Part shown: one piece after another, positions 8,839 through 17,402 of the stretch
How the letters are laid out: the number at the start of each line of letters is the position of its first letter
How positions within the stretch are numbered: the stretch's first letter is position 1
Source of the DNA: Dyella tabacisoli
GTDB lineage: Bacteria; Pseudomonadota; Gammaproteobacteria; Xanthomonadales; Rhodanobacteraceae
Direction of reading: 5' to 3'
DNA length: 64,000 bases
NCBI RefSeq assembly: GCF_003350925.1
Contig: NZ_KZ857173.1
Span: 558,001 to 622,000, forward strand
The notes under the pieces: generated by a model
Told to the model about the DNA's origin: nothing
Seen by the model: the letters and a program-made list of their open reading frames with translations, nothing else
Databases searched by the model: none
Program-made: the position numbers and the translations under genes

Positions 8839-10332
8839 ATGACGGACATCCTGATCGGCCGCAATCAAAGCACGAGTGTCAGCCTTGATCCTCGCTACGG
8901 CAACCGCCACGGCATGATCGCCGGCGCCACCGGCACCGGTAAGTCGGTATCGCTGATGGTGCTGGCCGAGGGCTTCTCGAAACTTGGCGTGCCTTGCTTT
9001 CTTGCCGACGCCAAGGGTGATCTGGCGGGTTTGGCCATGGCCGCAGGCGAGCCGGGCGACAAGCTGAAAGCGCGCCTGACCAGCCTCGGCCTGAGCGATT
9101 GGAAGCCGCAAGCGAATCCGGTGATCTTCTGGGACATCTACGGCAAGCTCGGCCACCCGGTGCGCGCCACCATCAGCGAGATGGGTCCCACCCTGCTTGG
9201 TCGCATTCTCGAACTCAACGACACTCAGGAAGGCGTGCTGGAGGTGATCTTCAAGGTCGCCGACGACCAGGGCTGGCTACTGCTGGATCTACCCGACCTG
9301 CGCGCGATGCTCAGCTTCGCCGCTGAAAACGCCAAGGACATCTCGACCCAGTACGGCCTTATCAGCACGCAAAGCATCGCGGCGATTCAGCGCAATCTGC
9401 TCAAGCTCGAACAGGACGGCGCCGACCAGTTCTTTGGCGAACCGGCGCTGGAATTAAGCGACTTGATGCGGCAGGACATGAGCGGCCGTGGTGTCATCAA
9501 TATTCTGGCAGCCGATCAATTGATCTTGAAGCCACGTCTGTATTCCACCTTTCTGCTGTGGCTGCTATCGGAGTTGTTCGAGCAACTGCCGGAAGTCGGC
9601 GATCTGGAACAACCCAAGCTGGTGTTTTTCTTCGACGAGGCACACTTGCTATTCAACGACGCACCCGCGGCCCTGCAGCAACGGGTGGAGCAGGTGGTTC
9701 GGCTGATCCGCTCCAAAGGTGTCGGCGTGTACTTCTGCTCGCAAAACCCGGACGACGTACCCGACAATATCCTCGGCCAGCTCGGCAACCGCATCCAACA
9801 CGCCTTGCGCGCCTTTACACCACGCGATCAAAAAGCCGTAAAGGCAGCGGCAGAAACCTTTGTCGCCAATCCCAAAATCAAAGTGGGCGAGGTCATCGGC
9901 CAACTGGCTGTCGGCGAGGCGCTGGCCTCTACGCTGCGCGATGGCGGCGTACCGACGCCGGTGGAGCAAGTGCTGGTGAGTTCGCCCACCGGACGTATCG
10001 GCGCCATCTCGGAAACCGAACGCGCCACGGCGCGGCAACGCTCTCCGGTCGGCGGTAAATACGATACGGCGATCAATCGCGAGTCGGCGGCTGAAATTCT
10101 CGCTAAACGCGCGGAAAACAAAGCTGCCGATCTATCTGCCGACAAAGAAGCCACCGCCGCTAGCGCAACATCAGGCTGGGGTGGTGCGATCAAAGACGCT
10201 CTGCTCGGTACCAGCCGCCGCCAAGGCATGATCGAGGCCATGGCCAAATCCGCCAGCCGCACTGTCGGCACGCGCCTAGGTCAACAGATCGTGCGCGGCG
10301 TGCTCGGCGGCATCTTCGGCGGAAAACGGTGA
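8839..10332 (+). CDS. HerA-like DUF853/YjgR-family ATPase
   Basis: 497 residues. Walker A is GATGTGKS at residues 29-36 and Walker B is FFFDEAHLLF near residue 265, as in the HerA/FtsK-like C-terminal helicase domain. VRLIRSKGVGVYFCSQNP and ALRAFTPRDQKAVKAAA are typical of the DUF853 (YjgR) group, whose cellular role is not settled. The C-terminal 100 residues are Ala/Lys-rich and end in a Gly-rich hydrophobic tail (VRGVLGGIFGGKR). The stop overlaps the ATG of the next gene by one base (TGATG), so the two are translationally coupled. Confidence 0.85.
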   Translation: MTDILIGRNQSTSVSLDPRYGNRHGMIAGATGTGKSVSLMVLAEGFSKLGVPCFLADAKGDLAGLAMAAGEPGDKLKARLTSLGLSDWKPQANPVIFWDIYGKLGHPVRATISEMGPTLLGRILELNDTQEGVLEVIFKVADDQGWLLLDLPDLRAMLSFAAENAKDISTQYGLISTQSIAAIQRNLLKLEQDGADQFFGEPALELSDLMRQDMSGRGVINILAADQLILKPRLYSTFLLWLLSELFEQLPEVGDLEQPKLVFFFDEAHLLFNDAPAALQQRVEQVVRLIRSKGVGVYFCSQNPDDVPDNILGQLGNRIQHALRAFTPRDQKAVKAAAETFVANPKIKVGEVIGQLAVGEALASTLRDGGVPTPVEQVLVSSPTGRIGAISETERATARQRSPVGGKYDTAINRESAAEILAKRAENKAADLSADKEATAASATSGWGGAIKDALLGTSRRQGMIEAMAKSASRTVGTRLGQQIVRGVLGGIFGGKR

Positions 10333-11585
10333 TGCGAAGGGTCGAAACCGTTGCGGCAGACACCCCGTTCTCCGAGCGCCTGGGCAACGGCTTCAGTTAC
10401 CCGTTGCGCGGCGCCGCACTAGCCACCTGCGTTGCGCTGGCGATATCGCATTACGTCGTGCTGTTGCCGGGCTTCATCGGCTCACTCGCCAGCATCCTGG
10501 TATGGGCCGCCACCTGGCGCTACGCCGCCGACTGCATGCTGCATACCGCGCACGGCTATGCCGACCCGCCGGACGTCAGCATCCACGGCAACGACTCCAG
10601 CGGCCGCGGACTCACCTTCATCCATATTCTGGCCGTCCTGCTGTGTGCGTTCACCGCGCTGTTTCATCTACACCTGCTATGGGTGCTGCTGGTTCTGTTG
10701 GCCTTGACCTTTCCTGCTATCGACATGTCGATGGCATTCGACGGCAATGTGCTGCTGGCGCTCAACCCGCTGAACTGGTGGCGGATCATCAGCAGCTTCG
10801 GCATGGCTTACCTGATTCCGGTCGCCATCAATCTACTGCTGGTCGTCTTGATCGTGATCGCGTCCGTTCTCACGGCGATGCTGCCCAAGCTGCTGGCCAT
10901 ACCGTTGTTTGCCTTCGCCTATACCTATCTCATCGTGCTCGGCTTTCATTTGATGGGCGCGATGATTCATCAACGTCACGAGCAATTCGGCCTTATCCCA
11001 GAGGCCCAGATCCTGGTCGAAGAGAATAAACAAGATGCCGACCAGCAATTGCTCGCCGAAGTGGACGAACTAGCTCCGCAGCATCCGCAACAGGCGATCG
11101 GTCTGCTGGTGACAAGGCTGCAAAACCGCAGTGCCCCCGCATCGATACACCTGGCTTACCGCAAGCTGCTGCAACGCCAAGGCCTGCGCGACGGGCTGCT
11201 GGTGCATGGCCAGATCTGGATTGCCGCCTTGATGGTGAGCGGCGAATCGCGCCGCGCACTGGGCTTGGTACAAGAGTGCGGCGAGATCGACCCGGCCTTT
11301 CTGCCCGACGATCCCCGCAACGCAGGTGAGCTGGCCGACCTCGCCGCACGCCTGGGCATGAGCCGGCTGGCGCTGAAACTTTGCCGGGGCTATCTCGCCA
11401 CCTGGCCCCGCGACGGCAAGGCACCGCACTATGGCTTGCTCGCCGCACAACAGCTCGGCGAACGCCTCGATCAACCTACCGAAGCTATCGTGCTGCTCGG
11501 CAAGTTGCGCACGGCATGGCCCGATCATCCGCTACGTGGCGAGATCGATGCGCTGGCGCGGCAACTGCAAGCGCAGCATTCATAA
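10332..11585 (+). CDS. Integral membrane protein with a TPR-like C-terminal domain
   Basis: About 417 residues from the ATG at 10332. The first 220 residues hold several hydrophobic segments (about 35-60, 95-130 and 160-210). The rest is soluble and helical, with repeated pairs such as HPQQAIGLLVTRLQNR, SRRALGLVQECGE and LALKLCRGYLATWP, reminiscent of TPR or Sel1 packing. I know membrane proteins of this layout as DUF4013-like but am not certain of the family. Coupling to the HerA-like ATPase suggests that the two act together at the membrane. The function is unknown. Confidence 0.65.
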   Translation: MRRVETVAADTPFSERLGNGFSYPLRGAALATCVALAISHYVVLLPGFIGSLASILVWAATWRYAADCMLHTAHGYADPPDVSIHGNDSSGRGLTFIHILAVLLCAFTALFHLHLLWVLLVLLALTFPAIDMSMAFDGNVLLALNPLNWWRIISSFGMAYLIPVAINLLLVVLIVIASVLTAMLPKLLAIPLFAFAYTYLIVLGFHLMGAMIHQRHEQFGLIPEAQILVEENKQDADQQLLAEVDELAPQHPQQAIGLLVTRLQNRSAPASIHLAYRKLLQRQGLRDGLLVHGQIWIAALMVSGESRRALGLVQECGEIDPAFLPDDPRNAGELADLAARLGMSRLALKLCRGYLATWPRDGKAPHYGLLAAQQLGERLDQPTEAIVLLGKLRTAWPDHPLRGEIDALARQLQAQHS

Positions 11586-11596
11586 GAGCCGGTTCA
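11583..11596 (-). repeat. GAACAGGCTCT-family motif, diverged copy
   Basis: The plus strand reads TAAGAGCCGGTTCA, so the minus strand reads TGAACCGGCTCTTA, with one change in the core. The TAA doubles as the stop codon of the preceding membrane protein gene. Together with the copy at 12366 it flanks the LuxR-type regulator gene. Confidence 0.5.
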
Positions 11597-11626
11597 AAAT
11601 CTCTGAGCGGCCCGCGACGACACATC

Positions 11627-12343
11627 TCAAACACATCGAACCCGCCTCAACATACTCACAGGCGCCGGCTGCACGGTGGCGTGATCGGGAATCTCCAGCG
11701 AAGTCAGGCCCTCGCGCAAGGCGTAGCGAGTCAACTCGGCGATACCGCGCAGGTTGAGCTTCTGCATGATGTGTTCGCGGTGGGTGCCGACGGTTTTTTC
11801 GCTGACGTGCAAACGTATCGCGACATCCTTGGTCGAATGGCCTTCGGAAAGCATCTGGGTAATTTCACGCTCGCGCGGCGTCAGCAGGACAAAGGCCGTC
11901 GCCTGACCCACGCCACCGGTTTGAACCGCGCGATAGTCATTGACCAGCACATGCGCAATGCCTGGACTGAGATAGACCTGCTGCAGGCATACCGCATGAA
12001 TGGCATCGAGCAACTCTCTGAAACTGCAACTATCGGACAAATAGCCCGATACCCCGGCATTGAAAGCGGCACGAATGCGTGCAATCGAACGATCCGCCGC
12101 GATGCAGATAGTTCGAGTGCGCGTACTGCGCGCCAAAATGCGCCGGGTCGCCTCGATGCCATTGAGCAAGGGCAAGGCAATGTCCATCAGCACCACATCG
12201 GGCTCATGCTCAACCGCCAAGCGGACACTATCTAGGCCATTGTCGGCCTGCCCGATCACCAGCATCTCTGCATGGCCCGCAAACAGCGATGTCAGACCCT
12301 CGCGGGCAAGGCCGCGACTATCGGCTACGACAATGCGTATCAC
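11627..12343 (-). CDS. NarL/LuxR-type response regulator with a degenerate receiver domain
   Basis: 238 residues. The receiver domain (about 1-120) keeps the acidic pocket (Asp8) and the phospho-acceptor Asp54 in VVLMDIALPLLNG. The usual Thr/Ser of strand 4 is Ala (ICIAADRS), and the conserved Lys of strand 5 is absent (GVSGYLSDS instead of GYLLK). The LuxR helix-turn-helix is intact (LTPREREITQMLSEGHSTKDVA and VSEKTVGTHREHIMQKL). No histidine kinase gene is adjacent. It lies downstream of the muramidase/DUF2589-like cluster on the same strand, about 300 bases away, and could control it; that is inference only. Confidence 0.85.
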   Translation of the reverse strand: MIRIVVADSRGLAREGLTSLFAGHAEMLVIGQADNGLDSVRLAVEHEPDVVLMDIALPLLNGIEATRRILARSTRTRTICIAADRSIARIRAAFNAGVSGYLSDSCSFRELLDAIHAVCLQQVYLSPGIAHVLVNDYRAVQTGGVGQATAFVLLTPREREITQMLSEGHSTKDVAIRLHVSEKTVGTHREHIMQKLNLRGIAELTRYALREGLTSLEIPDHATVQPAPVSMLRRVRCV

Positions 12344-12365
12344 GGATTCCCCCCGAAATCTTCCC

Positions 12366-12407
12366 TAAGAGCCTGTTCACGACCGCCGCCCGGCGCTTAT
12401 CGTGAAC
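12366..12407 (-). repeat. GAACAGGCTCT motif with inverted repeat upstream of the LuxR-type regulator
   Basis: TAAGAGCCTGTTCACGA on the plus strand reads TCGTGAACAGGCTCTTA toward the regulator, whose ATG lies 23 bases on. GTTCACGA (12375-12382) and TCGTGAAC (12400-12407) form a perfect 8-bp inverted repeat. It could be an operator, a 5' UTR hairpin or an interspersed repeat. Confidence 0.55.
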
Positions 12408-12640
12408 GGCCAAGAATCGACCGATGCATCCTCATGAGTCCTTGCATCGAACTCGCGGCCCTGACAAAACCCGCCTCAATGCCATAGCACTGCTGCGTTT
12501 GTTGATCGCCGTGACGGCCTCTGTGGCCAGATTGCTGATTACCGCCATAGGCACGGTTCGATTCAAGGAATCCGCTTCGACGCCTATATGGAGAAAAGGC
12601 CGGCGACAACATGCATTCACCGACCTGAGGCCACGCGTGC
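12408..12640. other. Intergenic region between the cluster and the LuxR-type regulator
   Basis: About 230 bases with no gene I can support. Short frames on both strands here lack a Shine-Dalgarno sequence and protein-like composition. It may hold the end of the cluster transcript and the promoter of the regulator. Confidence 0.4.
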
Positions 12641-12949
12641 CTAGGGCACGCCGCGCTCACGCCTCAAAACCCCGGCCTCGCGACCGCCGGAATGTCGCTT
12701 GTTCAGCAGAAAACAGAAGATCAGCAGCGCCGGTCCGGCATGCAGAAAAAGCCGGCTTGGCCACACGACCTCTTCACCGATGGCAACCCATAGATAGTGG
12801 TCATTGAGCATGGCGAATGTATCAAGCAGCGCACCGGCGGCAATCACACTGCAACTCAAGCGAATCGCACGTGAAAGCGATGGGTCAGCAATGCCCCACA
12901 TGGAAAAGATACTTGCCAGGCCGGCAAGAATGAAATCAAGCACGATCAT
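12641..12949 (-). CDS. Small membrane protein (candidate second holin-like or accessory protein)
   Basis: About 102 residues from the ATG at 12949, which has GAGG five bases upstream (GGGAGAGGGCGTG). Three hydrophobic segments are visible: MIVLDFILAGLASIFSMWGI, SCSVIAAGALLDTFAML and LFLHAGPALLIFCFLL. The tail is basic (NKRHSGG then RRERG). Small proteins with two or three spans and a charged tail are typical of holins and antiholins, but no family match is claimed. Its start overlaps the end of the upstream holin-like gene by 14 bases, so the two are coupled. It is the last gene of the cluster. Confidence 0.6.
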   Translation of the reverse strand: MIVLDFILAGLASIFSMWGIADPSLSRAIRLSCSVIAAGALLDTFAMLNDHYLWVAIGEEVVWPSRLFLHAGPALLIFCFLLNKRHSGGREAGVLRRERGVP

Positions 12950-13277
12950 CACGCCCTCTCCCAGGATCAAAGAAACGACCGAACAGACGAGCTATCAACG
13001 CCTCTCCATTGCTATCCATCCAACGCTGCGTAAGCACTGCAAAATTAGGGCCGAAGCACCCGATAAGAAAAGTAAGCGCCGACTGCACCGACGGTGTCGC
13101 CTGCGGAAAGAAGTAGGTAATGACGGCTGGCGCCAAAAACGCAGCGGTCAAAACGCCGCAAAGAATCTGTACCAGCGCATCACTGAAATGCGTTTGCCGG
13201 CGTAACGCTACCGGCAACACCGCCCCACCCACACCCGCAAGAAGCACCCACACATCGATTAATTTGAAGTCGTCCAT
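12936..13277 (-). CDS. Holin-like small membrane protein
   Basis: 113 residues with three candidate spans: VWVLLAGVGGAVLPVAL, VQILCGVLTAAFLAPAVI and SALTFLIGCFGPNFAVL. A hydrophilic basic C-terminus (RLFGRFFDPGRGRDD) follows. This topology and size resemble phage class I holins, and a muramidase gene lies in the same cluster. The similarity is structural and judged by eye. The start at 13277 lies 34 bases after the secreted protein gene. The 3' end overlaps the next membrane protein gene. Confidence 0.6.
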   Translation of the reverse strand: MDDFKLIDVWVLLAGVGGAVLPVALRRQTHFSDALVQILCGVLTAAFLAPAVITYFFPQATPSVQSALTFLIGCFGPNFAVLTQRWMDSNGEALIARLFGRFFDPGRGRDDRA

Positions 13278-13311
13278 ATAGCCACCTCGTCGCCATCAAT
13301 GCGCCGTCGCT

Positions 13312-14070
13312 TCAATACCCGGCGCGACGCAACACCCCGCTCTCCAGAAGACCGTTGCCGTCTGAAAACAGGCTGTAGCCAAGCGTTCCATCGTCGCCCA
13401 CCGTCAGCCGGGCGTAGCCATCCAGAAATTGATTGCATAGCCCGCCATTGGACCGGCGAAAGGCGAGGTACTCGCTATCGCCGTATGACCCGGCATACTC
13501 CAAGGCCAGGTTGCACCTACGTACACCGGCATAGCTCCATGTGCCGGCATCGCCACCTGGGCGCGAGGCATCCAGAGACACCGTCAATGCGATGGCGGGG
13601 CCATCCGTGGATGTTCGCTCCCAGGTCGCGTCGATAGGGAGCTTGGCGTATTGCTCCGCTCGCATCAGTGAGACATCCCCTTGATCGCCAAGACTTAGCG
13701 TGGCAGTGGCCTCACTCGCCGCCCCCTGCATAGCGATTTGCCTGGTCAATAAAGCGTTGCAAAAGCTGCCGCCGTTGCTGTCATCGGCGCTGAACAGAGC
13801 GAGATCCTCGGTTCTTGATATCTGCTTGATGCGCAGCTCGCAATTGCGCGGCGAACCAAAATGCAATTTGCCGGCCAACTTATTCGACGTTTCCGTCAAG
13901 AGCAGCGTCACAGCGACAGGCCGCTGCCCCGTATAGGCCTGGCCGGCCCAAGCACCCGACCGGCTATGCAGCACCGCGTCGGCAGCTATCGATGTCATCG
14001 GTATAGCTAACCATGCCAACGCCATGCTCAGTGCCGCATAGAGGTTCGTACAGGTCCGAATCATTTTCAT
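13312..14070 (-). CDS. Secreted protein made of two tandem cysteine-paired units
   Basis: 252 residues with a signal peptide (LYAALSMALAWLAIPMTSIAA). The mature protein is a tandem duplication of about 80-90 residues. Unit 1 has RNCELRI, then SNGGSFCNALLTRQ, then LGDQGDVSL. Unit 2 has RRCNLAL, then SNGGLCNQFLDGYARL, then VGDDGTLGYSL. Each unit holds two cysteines in matching positions, suggesting one disulfide per unit in a beta-rich fold. No known family is recognised. Its ATG overlaps the stop of the 56-residue protein gene (ATGA). An envelope or extracellular location is likely. Confidence 0.7.
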   Translation of the reverse strand: MKMIRTCTNLYAALSMALAWLAIPMTSIAADAVLHSRSGAWAGQAYTGQRPVAVTLLLTETSNKLAGKLHFGSPRNCELRIKQISRTEDLALFSADDSNGGSFCNALLTRQIAMQGAASEATATLSLGDQGDVSLMRAEQYAKLPIDATWERTSTDGPAIALTVSLDASRPGGDAGTWSYAGVRRCNLALEYAGSYGDSEYLAFRRSNGGLCNQFLDGYARLTVGDDGTLGYSLFSDGNGLLESGVLRRAGY

Positions 14071-14237
14071 GCTCCACTCCTAAGAACGATCAGTAAGCCA
14101 AGCAGCAGCGCGATCGCCAGCACGACGGCCACGCATGTTCGATACCGCCACGAGGGCTTTCTCAGCGAGTCGCCCATCAATTGCACCAGGCGCTGCGAAT
14201 CCTGCGGCGACATCACGAATTCGATCTTTCTAGCCAT
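14067..14237 (-). CDS. 56-residue single-span membrane protein
   Basis: This short frame begins MARKIEFVMSPQDSQRLVQL and ends in a single hydrophobic span (VAVVLAIALLLGLLIVL) plus RSGA. Its ATG shares a base with the stop of the upstream gene (TAATG) and has GAGGAGG eight bases upstream. Its own TGA overlaps the ATG of the secreted protein gene (ATGA). The double overlap with a strong ribosome site makes it very likely real. The N-terminus should be cytoplasmic, with the span near the C-terminus. This resembles tail-anchored or pinholin-like proteins, but no family is recognised. Confidence 0.75.
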   Translation of the reverse strand: MARKIEFVMSPQDSQRLVQLMGDSLRKPSWRYRTCVAVVLAIALLLGLLIVLRSGA

Positions 14238-14746
14238 TACGCCTCCTCGCTCACCGGCAAGGTTCGTAACAGCAGGCCATTCACGCGCACCTCTCCATCA
14301 ACAGCGTCCACTCCAGAAAAGCGAATACACAACTGATGTGGTGCACGGCGGCGGCGACCTCGCCAGACGCGTACAACGACACGCTCATCACCGGCTCGGG
14401 TGCGCCGGCGATACATCTGGCAATCCATACTTATTTCCAGACTTGCGATCTGCGCTATACGGTGCGGCCGAAACTGAGCAAGAGGAATGACCAGCGGTGA
14501 CATCGCATCGTTGGTGTCGAGCGGCTCGACCCGAAATGGCGGAGCGTTGTCGAACATCGCACTCATCGCCCGCGCATGACCGCGTCTTATGGCTTCTTGC
14601 GCATCGCATACGGCGCGTTGAACCGTCTGCAGCCATTCATCGAAACCATATTCGGCCACCCAAGTTCTCCCATTCAAGGCGACGGGGTGCATCAGCGTGA
14701 GCGCCAGTGAGCCTGGTATCCGCGATGCTTTTGCGTACATGAGCAT
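14237..14746 (-). CDS. Divergent DUF2589-like protein
   Basis: Up to 169 residues; ATG codons at 14746 and 14740 are both possible, and neither has a strong ribosome site. It shares spaced motifs with the two neighbouring DUF2589-like proteins. These are a helix with AVCDAQEAI (others: AVIEAQDRV, AACEAQIKL), a strand pair VIPLAQF with SLEISMDCQ (others: VPLLSLV with DVEISFDAD), and a C-terminal CIRFSGVDAVDGEVR (others: VVMRVEGAEPTDGAAR). A basic stretch, WRGRRRRAPH, is unique to this copy. It begins 16 bases after the 86-residue gene and couples to the 56-residue gene. Function unknown. Confidence 0.65.
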   Translation of the reverse strand: MLMYAKASRIPGSLALTLMHPVALNGRTWVAEYGFDEWLQTVQRAVCDAQEAIRRGHARAMSAMFDNAPPFRVEPLDTNDAMSPLVIPLAQFRPHRIAQIASLEISMDCQMYRRRTRAGDERVVVRVWRGRRRRAPHQLCIRFSGVDAVDGEVRVNGLLLRTLPVSEEA

Positions 14747-14762
14747 CTTGCAGACATTGACC

Positions 14763-15023
14763 CTAGGTTCCGGTCAACCACGCTGGCTTGCGCGGAAAGC
14801 CAACGTGATAGCAAAGCCACTGCAATACGACCTGGTGCTCGCCGAGTTGCAGGATCGTGAAACCTTTCTCGATGCCGACAATCGAGCCTTTCGGACTTTC
14901 CGACAGACAGCGATTGAGCAATTCACGGGCTTCTTCGATCTGAGCCTCCGAACGCAACTGATTGGGATTGTCATTACCTACCACGATGCGCTTGATGAAC
15001 TTGACTTCGGTCAGGTCGAACAT
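14763..15023 (-). CDS. Small conserved-looking protein of unknown function
   Basis: 86 residues from the ATG at 15023, which has GGAG ten bases upstream; a GTG at 15038 is possible. It starts MFDLTEVKFIKRIVVGNDNP and continues with an acidic helix (RSEAQIEEARELLNRCL) and a beta-like end (GFTILQLGEHQVVLQWLCYHVG). There is no signal or membrane segment. It is placed between two DUF2589-like genes on the same strand, 102 bases after one and 16 bases before the other. A cytoplasmic accessory or chaperone role is possible, but nothing in the sequence proves it. Confidence 0.6.
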   Translation of the reverse strand: MFDLTEVKFIKRIVVGNDNPNQLRSEAQIEEARELLNRCLSESPKGSIVGIEKGFTILQLGEHQVVLQWLCYHVGFPRKPAWLTGT

Positions 15024-15125
15024 CGCGACGATCTCCACGGCGGCGTATGGGATGGCCCTACATTTGAATCTTTACAACAAGCGGATAACGAACCCATCAA
15101 ACCCTGCTGATCGACGTCGTCACGC

Positions 15126-15803
15126 TCAGGTGCCTGAGGGCGCGGGCGCCGGCGCCGGTGCAGGCGTTGCAGCTACCGCTACGGGCGCACTGATCTTGCG
15201 CGGTGCGCAAGCGGTCTGCAGGATGTCGAGCACACGTGCCAGACCCTCGGGCATGCCACCGTCTTCGGCATGCACGGCCACGGTGTACTTGGCGGAATTA
15301 TCCGAGGTACGCGCATTTTCTTTATGCGTAGCCACGGAGCCCTGCACATGCACCTTGGCCGAAAAAATACCCCAATTGATGGACGCGTCCAGCGAGGCCG
15401 AGGCCGACATATCCGACGACGACTTTTCGGTGTAAGACGACTTCACTTCCATCTCGAAATTCACATCGACCTTGGTAATGCTCAAGTTCGGCACCTTTAC
15501 GATCGCCAGCAACGGAACCTCCAACTCGACCTCTTCCTCAGCGATGGGCGAGCCGTTGGGACCGGGTTGCGGGTTGTCTACCGGGCGCTTGAAACGAAAC
15601 AATGCAGTGCGGGTGGCGCCGACCGCGTTCGGGTCCTTACCGCCGGCCGCCGGCGGCAAAAAGCCGATGAGCTTGATGAAGTCGGCGGTAGCATTGGCCA
15701 GCTTGATCTGCGCTTCGCAAGCCGCGCTCAACGGACCACCGATCAAGTCTTGCATCGGCAGCCCTTTGAACTGGCTCGACATGTTGACGAGTTCGTCAGC
15801 CAT
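15126..15803 (-). CDS. DUF2589-family protein, long form
   Basis: 225 residues. It begins MADELVNMSSQFKGLPMQDL, continues LIGGPLSAACEAQIKLANA, and later has LEVPLLAIVKVPNLSITKVD with NFEMEVKSSY, the pattern I know as DUF2589. A Ser-rich middle (YTEKSSSDMSASASLDAS) and repeated beta strands follow. The C-terminus is an Ala/Pro tail (PAPAPAPAPSGT). There is no signal peptide. AAGGAG lies eight bases before the ATG, an excellent ribosome site that predicts high expression. The molecular function of the family is unknown to me. It is the largest of three related proteins in this cluster. Confidence 0.75.
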   Translation of the reverse strand: MADELVNMSSQFKGLPMQDLIGGPLSAACEAQIKLANATADFIKLIGFLPPAAGGKDPNAVGATRTALFRFKRPVDNPQPGPNGSPIAEEEVELEVPLLAIVKVPNLSITKVDVNFEMEVKSSYTEKSSSDMSASASLDASINWGIFSAKVHVQGSVATHKENARTSDNSAKYTVAVHAEDGGMPEGLARVLDILQTACAPRKISAPVAVAATPAPAPAPAPSGT

Positions 15804-15997
15804 GATGTTTCTCCTTCGGTGAATGTCGAACTACAAACAGTGCTCGTGGCTCTAACCACCGCACTGGCGCGAGCCACCATGGCCCACTACGACCTACGGC
15901 TTGCCAAACACCGAGGCCGCGCTTGCCGAATGCGCAGACCGCATTCGACTCACCGGAAAGATGCCAAAAGCATCTCGCCCATGTCCTTTGACGATAC

Positions 15998-16516
15998 TCA
16001 ACTGACCTTGATCGTCTTGAATACGCCCTGGCTCTGCGCGAGGTGATTGATAAGCCGTGCCGCCCCATCCGTCGGCTCGGCTCCCTCCACGCGCATCACC
16101 ACGTGGACCGAGCCCTGCCTGCGTCCGGCGGTTGCCGCCTGGGTGTCGATGCCGACGATCGTGCGCGGCGACGAAGGATGCGCGGTCCAATTCGCCGCAG
16201 GCGCCGCACCGTTATCGCCTGGTGGCGGCGCCTGCTCCGTCATCTCGCCAAGATCGGCATCGAAACTGATTTCGACATCCTTGATGTGCAACACATTGGT
16301 CGAGACCAGGGAAAGCAACGGCACGCGATACAGATCCTCATCGTTCTCGTCCGCCTGCGGATGCGCCGAGGGCAAGCGAATCGTGACGCTGTGCGGCCGA
16401 TTATCGGCATCGAAATAATCACGCAGCAGCGCCGTCTGATGCTGGGTAACGCGGTCTTGCGCTTCGATCACCGCACCGGCCAGGGCTTTGATGAGATCGT
16501 TGAGCGAGGTAGCCAT
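15998..16516 (-). CDS. DUF2589-family protein, short form
   Basis: 172 residues. An N-terminal helix (LNDLIKALAGAVIEAQDRV) precedes a beta-rich part with YRVPLLSLV, HIKDVEISFDADLGEM and a C-terminal VHVVMRVEGAEPTDGAAR. It shares the domain order of the 225-residue neighbour but lacks the Ser-rich middle and the Ala/Pro tail. There is no signal peptide or membrane span. AAGGA lies six to seven bases before the ATG, directly after a copy of the GAACAGGCTCT motif. A 194-base gap separates it from the next DUF2589-like gene; I see no gene or clear signal in that gap. Confidence 0.72.
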   Translation of the reverse strand: MATSLNDLIKALAGAVIEAQDRVTQHQTALLRDYFDADNRPHSVTIRLPSAHPQADENDEDLYRVPLLSLVSTNVLHIKDVEISFDADLGEMTEQAPPPGDNGAAPAANWTAHPSSPRTIVGIDTQAATAGRRQGSVHVVMRVEGAEPTDGAARLINHLAQSQGVFKTIKVS

Positions 16517-16527
16517 AGAAAATCCTT

Positions 16528-16540
16528 GAGAGCCTGTTCA
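16528..16540 (-). repeat. GAACAGGCTCT motif in the leader of the short DUF2589-like gene
   Basis: The minus strand reads TGAACAGGCTCTC ending 12 bases before the ATG at 16516, with the ribosome site AAGGA in between. Core and orientation match the copies ahead of the regulator (12366), the HerA-like gene (8791) and the DMT transporter (53181). Confidence 0.55.
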
Positions 16541-16598
16541 GCCGCACAAACCCATCGCAAACCGTTACCGCACGGCGACGATTTGCATAGCGCTACGG

Positions 16599-17135
16599 TC
16601 AGAGGGTGGGAAAGGCATTGACGCGGGCCAGCCAGCCCTTGAGAAATTTGCCCATCACAGGCCGACGCTCGACCAACTGGTTGTAGTAGTCCACGCGGCC
16701 TTGCTTGTAACGCCGATACACTTCGGTTTGATCCAGCTCGGCCAAGCGCGCCAGCGTGGCCGGCCCGATCCCGCCATCGACGGCGAGCGGCGGTTTATCG
16801 CTGAGTTGATTGAGTACGCGCTGCAGCAGGCTGCCCGCATTGGCGCCGGCATTCACATTGAAATCGAAAACGATCTCGGCGAGCGGCTGCAAGGCGATCG
16901 TATCGCCACCGATGCGATCCCAGTACATCGCCTTATAGATGACCCCCGCCTGCGCAGGGGTCAGTGCACGCAGGTTGTCCAGGGTCGGGGCAATCTTGAG
17001 CAATGAGTTCGCACAACGGTTGAAGGTTTCCATCGTGATGCCAAGATTGGTCGCACCACCCGGATCATCGGGATCATTGACAAAGCCACCCTCGAACTTG
17101 AGCAGGGTCGGAAAAAACATATCGAAATTAGCCAT
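16599..17135 (-). CDS. GH108-type N-acetylmuramidase (endolysin-like)
   Basis: 178 residues from the ATG at 17135, which is preceded by AAGGGGAGAG. The catalytic motif of glycoside hydrolase family 108 is clear: LKFEGGFVNDPDDPGGATN near residues 12-30, with the acid Glu in EGG. The C-terminal half, with AVDGGIGPATLARLAEL, matches the peptidoglycan-binding domain usual for these enzymes. There is no signal peptide, so release to the wall would need a holin-like pore or another route. It is the first gene of the cluster and is divergent from greB. Related enzymes are known as phage lysins and bacterial muramidases. Confidence 0.88.
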   Translation of the reverse strand: MANFDMFFPTLLKFEGGFVNDPDDPGGATNLGITMETFNRCANSLLKIAPTLDNLRALTPAQAGVIYKAMYWDRIGGDTIALQPLAEIVFDFNVNAGANAGSLLQRVLNQLSDKPPLAVDGGIGPATLARLAELDQTEVYRRYKQGRVDYYNQLVERRPVMGKFLKGWLARVNAFPTL

Positions 17136-17402
17136 GCGTCTCTCCCCTTGGCGATTGACGGCACACCCATGCCATCGGTCGTAGGCCAGCATGACCATCT
17201 CGCCATGCCGGGGGGATCGGTAAATGACTGATATAAGACTTCCGAAAATCCTGGCACGCCGAGGCATCGAAGATGGGCCTGGGCAATTTCCGCTGGGTTG
17301 GTCCAGCAGAAGCGCACAGAGTGCATGGCTGGATTAAGATCATCCCCTCACTCGCCGGACACGGACTTTCGTGCCATACCTGCAACTGCAATCGATAACC
17401 GT

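What the first reader, a model, noticed from the sequence alone, without database searches (positions are those of the whole stretch)
12641..17135. Muramidase, holin-like and DUF2589-like gene cluster without phage structural genes
Nine short minus-strand genes follow one another, several with overlapping starts and stops. They encode a GH108 muramidase without a signal peptide, three related DUF2589-like proteins, an 86-residue protein, a 56-residue single-span protein, a secreted duplicated protein and two small three-span proteins of holin type. No integrase, terminase, capsid, tail or portal gene is near. Phage-like lysis genes used for protein release are known from Serratia chitinase secretion (type 10 secretion). 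I infer a domesticated lysis or export cassette whose cargo could be the DUF2589-like or the secreted duplicated protein.
Basis: partly seen in the sequence, partly recalled or inferred. Interest (0 to 1): 0.82.

Follow-up and report, generated by a model that had tools for sequence, protein, structure and literature searches.

The report
DUF2589 operon with phage-type lysin
A ten-gene block, present in this bacterium but missing from the same place in a sister species, joins a conserved set of proteins of unknown function to a phage-type wall-cutting enzyme and small membrane proteins, and looks like a device for releasing or delivering those proteins.

Summary
Nine minus-strand genes (12641-17135) encode a GH108 muramidase, three DUF2589-like proteins (two by Pfam, one by profile comparison), an 86-aa protein, a tail-anchored protein, an exported duplicated protein and two holin-type membrane proteins. 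A tenth gene, a LuxR-type regulator (11627-12343), lies in the same block: a sister species has an empty site, so 11556-17334 was gained or lost as a unit. The core is not the lysis part. D1, D2 and P86 together occur in 77 of the 80 closest named loci, while the lysin is GH108, GH19, a PG-binding enzyme or a VgrG3-like one, and is unrecognised in 13 with adequate flanks. In a wider draw (8 distant loci) P86 is in 4 and a lysin in 2, so linkage fades with distance. Best reading: a regulated DUF2589-P86 assembly released, T10SS-like, by an exchangeable module; release itself is inferred. A few phage contigs carry DUF2589 with capsid or tail genes. One passing mention of DUF2589 was found in the library searched.

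The parts
16599..17135 (-). MUR: GH108 muramidase with PG_binding_3, no signal-like N-terminus
   Evidence: EGG motif (recalled as the GH108 active-site region) in 46 of 46 GH108 hits, some of them one genome under two ids
15998..16516 (-). D1: DUF2589 protein
   Evidence: PF11655 3.6e-28; in 78 of 80 named loci
15126..15803 (-). D2: DUF2589 protein with a long amphipathic beta region
   Evidence: PF11655 1.3e-45; fold; beta moment
14763..15023 (-). P86: 86-aa core protein, compact beta-alpha-beta-beta fold, no family
   Evidence: in 78 of 80 named loci; 69% mean column identity over 47 sequences; pLDDT 92.9
14237..14746 (-). P169: diverged third DUF2589-like protein
   Evidence: hhalign against D1 profile 96.9%, E 1.4e-10
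14067..14237 (-). P56: small tail-anchored membrane protein
   Evidence: one C-terminal span; 29 of 80 named loci list a hydrophobic ORF of 30 aa or more at the same place, counted by eye and not screened for chance
13312..14070 (-). SEC: exported protein, duplicated domain with two conserved Cys
   Evidence: no Pfam match
12936..13277 (-). HOL1: holin-type membrane protein
   Evidence: phrog_2359 holin 3.7e-11
12641..12949 (-). HOL2: small membrane protein next to HOL1
   Evidence: present with HOL1 in 16 of 16 other family cassettes; no significant family match
11627..12343 (-). RR: LuxR/NarL-type response regulator with degenerate receiver, in the same inserted block
   Evidence: Response_reg 8.2e-18 and GerE 1.8e-18; inside the block; upstream of the cassette in 16 of 16 other family cassettes
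11556..17334 (.). Block absent from the sister species (105 bp there instead)
   Evidence: GC 58.5% against a mean of 60.8% (sd 1.1, lowest 58.6%) for 117 overlapping windows of that size

Best explanation
The ten genes are one regulated unit. SHOWN: a core of D1, D2 and P86; a GH108 lysin directly before D1 on the same strand; a holin-family membrane protein; an exported protein; a linked regulator; an empty site in a sister species. INFERRED: the block was gained horizontally; the regulator switches it on; D1, D2, P169 and P86, which have no export signal, assemble in the cytosol; HOL1/HOL2 permeabilise the inner membrane and let the signal-less muramidase reach the wall; the DUF2589-P86 assembly is released, by lysis of some cells or without lysis as reported for Salmonella T10SS. 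The payload is constant and the release module (GH108 with holins or F16, GH19, PG-binding, VgrG3-like) is exchanged between lineages.
For: In the 80 named loci closest to D2: D1 and P86 in 78 each, D1, D2 and P86 together in 77; GH108 31, GH19 21, PG-binding 8 (one locus has two), none of these 21; one of the 21 has a VgrG3-like enzyme. Lysin state needs at least 11 changes on a quick D2 tree. 59 of 60 lysin hits are on D2's strand; GH108 lies a median 37 nt before D1. No signal-like N-terminus in 61 of 61 lysin hits, 79 D1, 81 D2, 79 P86 (hydropathy only). In family genomes 15 of 16 GH108 genes are in cassettes; 10 of 13 DUF2589 genomes against 1 of 134 others have GH108 (Fisher 3e-12). phrog_2359 holin: 17 of 17 cassettes, 3 matches elsewhere in 147 genomes. 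HOL and F16 membrane proteins never occur together (14 and 16 of 80). A GH108-holin pair 0.4 kb apart without DUF2589 in G013 suggests that these two pair naturally. Block with regulator.
Against: The 80 loci are the best of 280 by D2 similarity, a selected set. In 398 phylum genomes drawn evenly, 8 besides the window's have DUF2589: P86 in 4 of 8, a recognised lysin in 2 of 8 (both GH19), no recognised HOL1 in any. L061 and L062 have HOL1/HOL2 and the regulator but no recognised lysin. Thirteen named loci with 2.5 kb or more of flank have no recognised lysin, among them three-gene D1-D2-P86 loci (L140, L148); other lysin families were looked for there only by eye in a part. 20 of 21 GH19 loci and all 7 PG-binding loci without GH108 have neither HOL1 nor F16. 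No spanin was recognised. Release was not tested. D2's model is of low confidence.
Confidence: 0.43

Rival explanations
1. The DUF2589 proteins are not cargo but the envelope-breaching part: D2 forms a beta-barrel or tube that pierces a membrane (its own outer membrane, in place of spanins, or another cell's), while lysin and holin clear the way.
For: Amphipathic beta pattern in D2 (57 sequences, mean z against shuffles: 3.5 for residues 108-126, 2.3 for 126-146, 2.0 for 146-166). Predicted strands 111-128 and 163-180 flank a variable stretch. Weak fold matches over 108-182 include pore-forming toxins and phage collar proteins. No spanin recognised.
Against: pLDDT under 50 for residues 126-167. 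Ordinary strands can be amphipathic too: z is 1.8 for 86-98, 1.2 for 163-180 and 0.2 for 66-78. No PDB match with E <= 0.001; best Z 3.4, to a row over the N-terminal helix.
Confidence: 0.22
2. The lysin is the payload: the DUF2589-P86 assembly carries a wall-degrading enzyme into competing cells, and a periplasmic partner protects the producer.
For: At least four unrelated lysin kinds, three of them checked and without export signals. One is LysM plus T6SS VgrG3-like C-terminal domain (7e-50). L131 has a LprI lysozyme inhibitor (4.5e-23) before its lysin. Most GH19 and PG-binding loci show no holin.
Against: Close LprI relatives were found in 1 of 113 loci and not in the window (phmmer). GH108 cassettes mostly have holins or F16 (27 of 31), which a carried effector would not need. 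Loci without recognised lysin keep the core.
Confidence: 0.16
3. A trans-envelope structure built by DUF2589/P86/P56/SEC, with a dedicated but replaceable peptidoglycan hydrolase that opens the wall for assembly.
For: Soluble, membrane and exported components in one block; interchangeable hydrolase; core without recognised lysin in some loci.
Against: The hydrolase has no signal peptide, unlike most such assembly enzymes (recalled); holin-family partner.
Confidence: 0.13
4. A prophage remnant or stray lysis genes without a joint function.
For: GH108 and HOL1 belong to phage families; a few phage contigs carry DUF2589.
Against: Same gene set in 16 other family cassettes, core across classes; flanks are backbone genes; D2 matches no INPHARED record at 1e-5.
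Confidence: 0.04

Closest known systems
Type 10 secretion systems (Serratia chiWXYZ; Salmonella ChiH/ChiP and TtsA; Yersinia entomophaga)
   Same: Phage-type holin plus a peptidoglycan hydrolase without signal peptide, outside a phage, with a dedicated regulator (features from the Introduction of PMC13284979).
   Different: No cargo of known function; DUF2589/P86 core without counterpart in the account read; no spanin recognised; lysin exchanged or unrecognised in other loci; MUR far below the NCBIfam cut-off for the holin-associated N-acetylmuramidase (100 against 240 bits).
Phage GH108 endolysins and holins
   Same: MUR matches 630 phage records by tblastn (listed rows 36-38% identity); HOL1 is of a PHROG holin family.
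   Different: Embedded in a conserved bacterial block; HOL1 itself has no tblastn match in phages at 1e-3.
DUF2589 (PF11655), including the Archaeoglobus AF0414-AF0417 region
   Same: Neighbouring short DUF2589-related genes; the archaeal ones were up-regulated on lactate (PMC3949148, one passage read).
   Different: That passage names no lysin or holin and no function.

Membership tests
Type 10 secretion system | Holin encoded in the system | tested here: met
   HOL1 phrog_2359 3.7e-11, in 17 of 17 family cassettes; by sequence only, activity untested
Type 10 secretion system | Peptidoglycan hydrolase without export signal | tested here: met
   GH108 1.1e-24; no hydrophobic N-terminus
Type 10 secretion system | Spanins (in Serratia chiWXYZ; not named for the Salmonella systems) | tested here: inconclusive
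   None recognised in the nine genes by Pfam/PHROGs or by eye; SEC and P56 are unassigned
Type 10 secretion system | Release of a specific cargo depending on holin and hydrolase | not testable with these tools
   needs the secretome of mutants
GH108 muramidases | PF05838 over its cut-off with the EGG motif | tested here: met
   87.2 against 21.2 bits; motif in 46 of 46 hits
DUF2589 (PF11655) | Profile match over cut-off | tested here: met
   D1 99.3 and D2 155.9 bits against 23; P169 not matched, related by profile comparison only
Prophage | Capsid, tail, terminase, portal or integrase genes next to the cassette | tested here: not met
   10 flanking proteins against PHROGs: no capsid, portal or integrase; a weak terminase-like stretch (7.1e-9) in 8839-10329, which continues in the sister species; 7225-8712 matches lytic tail, virion and endolysin families over a transglycosylase-like stretch
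Beta-pore-forming proteins (for D2) | Fold shared with a known pore former | tested here: inconclusive
   best such row Z 2.7, rmsd 9.0 over 75 residues; model confidence low

The most novel reading that the evidence does not exclude
An undescribed bacterial machine: a DUF2589-P86 assembly, possibly barrel- or tube-forming and shared with some phage gene sets, which bacteria couple to whichever phage-type lysin is at hand in order to leave the cell or to breach envelopes.
Probability: 0.28. Interest if true: 0.88.

Novelty: new variant of a known kind. Interest (0 to 1): 0.7.

Why it matters
If right, holin/lysin-based release has been coupled repeatedly to one conserved protein assembly, with the lysin exchanged like a spare part. 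That would give protein families of unknown function (DUF2589, P86, SEC) a first testable role, and would make 'what does this lysis module release' an experiment on a ten-gene block with a natural empty-site relative.

Tried and rejected
Gene calling by codon use gave antisense calls and 'noD2' rows in many loci; that map was dropped for the profile-based map, on which the locus counts rest. D1, D2 and P169 profiles cross-match, so P169 counts are by best score only; the AraC-like regulator profile also counts weak matches of 25-28 bits. LprI as a general partner: one locus only. SEC as a solved fold: no PDB sequence match at E 0.1 or better. P86 as an Alba-like protein: best Z 4.7, ribosomal-protein and Alba chains tied, so no assignment. 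Promoter or terminator by consensus: 1 and 7 sites against 3.0 and 5.8 in shuffles. A repeat before D1 and RR was first taken for a cassette operator, but it has 35 matches in the genome (up to 2 mismatches), 2 for the reversed control. Literature: DUF2589 searched (1 paper; 0 among those listed); searched T10SS, holin and muramidase terms only. The direction of transfer between phages and bacteria was not tested. A histidine kinase for the regulator was not searched for.
Full report
WHAT IS THERE. The nine reported genes exist as described. Domain scans give a GH108 muramidase (1.1e-24), two DUF2589 proteins (3.6e-28, 1.3e-45) and a holin-family membrane protein (phrog_2359, 3.7e-11); the others have no significant match. 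A tenth gene, a LuxR/NarL-type response regulator at 11627-12343, follows on the same strand.

UNIT AND BOUNDARIES. In the other genome held from the same genus the neighbours on either side (a GreB-type gene and a 418-aa protein) lie about 110 bp apart. Alignment shows 105 bp there where the window has 11556-17334. That block holds the nine genes and the regulator. Two further family genomes (G010, G032) also have these two neighbours side by side, and carry their own cassettes elsewhere, so gain in this species is the simpler reading. Its GC is 58.5%, just under the lowest (58.6%) of 117 overlapping windows of that size, mean 60.8%. The flanks are backbone: similarity to the sister species continues on both sides. 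Of 10 flanking proteins none matched a capsid, portal or integrase PHROG; one has a weak terminase-like stretch (7.1e-9) and one matches lytic tail, virion and endolysin families over a transglycosylase-like stretch.

LINKAGE IN THE FAMILY. PF11655 is in 13 of 147 same-family genomes, at 18 sites with the window's. One site (G117) is divergent and shows no partner. The 16 others all have D1, D2, P86, SEC, HOL1, HOL2 in the window's order and a LuxR-type regulator; 14 have GH108 directly before D1, 14 a recognised P169. In all 16 the regulator is upstream of the cassette, in the window it is downstream. GH108 is in 11 of 147 genomes as 16 genes, 15 beside DUF2589: 10 of 13 DUF2589 genomes against 1 of 134 others (Fisher 3e-12). 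The holin family phrog_2359 has 20 matches in these genomes, 17 of them in the 17 cassettes. Of the other three, the one in G013 lies 0.4 kb from the only GH108 gene outside a cassette.

LINKAGE BEYOND THE FAMILY. A scan of genomes of 84,980 species with the D2 alignment confirmed 280 relatives; the best 80 were kept, so the following counts are for a selected set, some of it the same genomes as above. Labels: Pseudomonadota 68, Thermodesulfobacteriota 9, Myxococcota 2 (both unclassified 'Deltaproteobacteria' MAGs), none 1. D1 is in 78, P86 in 78, D1, D2 and P86 together in 77, SEC in 57. Lysin within 6 kb: GH108 31, GH19 21, PG-binding type 8 (L131 matches two of the profiles, probably one protein), none of these 21. 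Of the 21, one has LysM plus a T6SS VgrG3-like C-terminal domain, 7 are near a contig end, and 13 have 2.5 kb or more on both sides without one; other lysin families were not scanned for systematically. At least 11 changes of lysin state, 'none' counted as a state, are needed on the D2 tree (quick tree, 31 of 78 inner branches weak). HOL1/HOL2 are in 14, F16 in 16, never both; regulators are LuxR type 30, AraC-like 12, OmpR-like 11, none recognised 27. A less selected view is weaker: of 398 phylum genomes drawn evenly, 8 besides the window's have DUF2589. There D1, D2 and P86 are together in 4, GH19 is in 2, GH108 and HOL1 in none, and 2 show D2 alone.

PROTEINS. By hydropathy none of 32 GH108, 21 GH19, 8 PG-binding, 79 D1, 81 D2 or 79 P86 hits has a strongly hydrophobic N-terminus; 38 of 58 SEC hits do (no signal predictor). 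P86 folds with high confidence (pLDDT 92.9) but resembles nothing clearly. D2 folds poorly (62.4). Its residues 108-166 are amphipathic in beta periodicity across 57 sequences (mean z 2.0-3.5), but another strand, 86-98, reaches 1.8. Weak fold matches over 108-182 are pore toxins, phage collar and upper-tail proteins. This is a lead, not a finding. The best library match to D2 is one viral protein in BFVD (A0A516MP19, E 1.4e-8, no name given). The linked regulators have degenerate receivers: the position that I aligned to the conserved Lys is Lys in 0 of 44, the acceptor Asp is kept in 37 of 44 (positions recalled).

PHAGE SIDE. D2 has no match among 50,697 phage records at 1e-5; two IMG/VR homologues find only one unannotated 4-kb record. 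Eight IMG/VR contigs match, some nearly the same. L152 has a DUF2589 pair on a contig with a major head protein (phrog_371, 1.8e-21); L159 has DUF2589 on a contig with a tail sheath (9.2e-41), an M15 peptidase and a patatin. So DUF2589 also occurs in a few phages; the direction of transfer is unknown. Three plasmid records (two Vibrio, one Deltaproteobacteria) also match D2.

READING. A constant core, an exchangeable lysin, a holin-family partner, a regulator and a signal-less payload fit a T10SS-like release device whose likely payload is the DUF2589-P86 assembly. Against it stand cassettes with holins but no recognised lysin (L061, L062), loci with lysin but no recognised holin, three-gene loci (L140, L148), and the weak linkage in distant loci. 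These keep the rivals alive, above all that D2 itself breaches a membrane. T10SS features are from PMC13284979 (abstract, outline and Introduction read). DUF2589 appears in one paper of the library as a passing mention (PMC3949148, one passage read).

Noticed in passing
window 12362-12379, 16523-16540, 11579-11596: A TGAACAGGCTCT-type repeat lies just before the regulator and before D1; in the genome the pattern has 35 matches (up to 2 mismatches) against 2 for the reversed control, so it is a dispersed element of unknown nature.
   Followed up: partly
window 11627-12343 and 43 related regulator hits: Cassette-linked LuxR-type regulators have degenerate receivers (aligned Lys position never Lys in 44; acceptor Asn, Glu or Gly in 7), suggesting control without ordinary phosphorylation.
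   Followed up: partly
L131 3439-3840: A LprI lysozyme-inhibitor gene lies before the lysin of a Desulforhopalus DUF2589 locus.
   Followed up: partly
L159 7914-10588: Phage-like contig with tail sheath, M15 peptidase, patatin phospholipase and DUF2589.
   Followed up: no
G013 C10:73663-74546: GH108 and phrog_2359 holin genes 0.4 kb apart without DUF2589 in a family genome; surroundings not examined.
   Followed up: no
L050/L051, L052/L053, L054/L055, L056/L057, L059/L060: Five family genomes carry two copies of the cassette.
   Followed up: no
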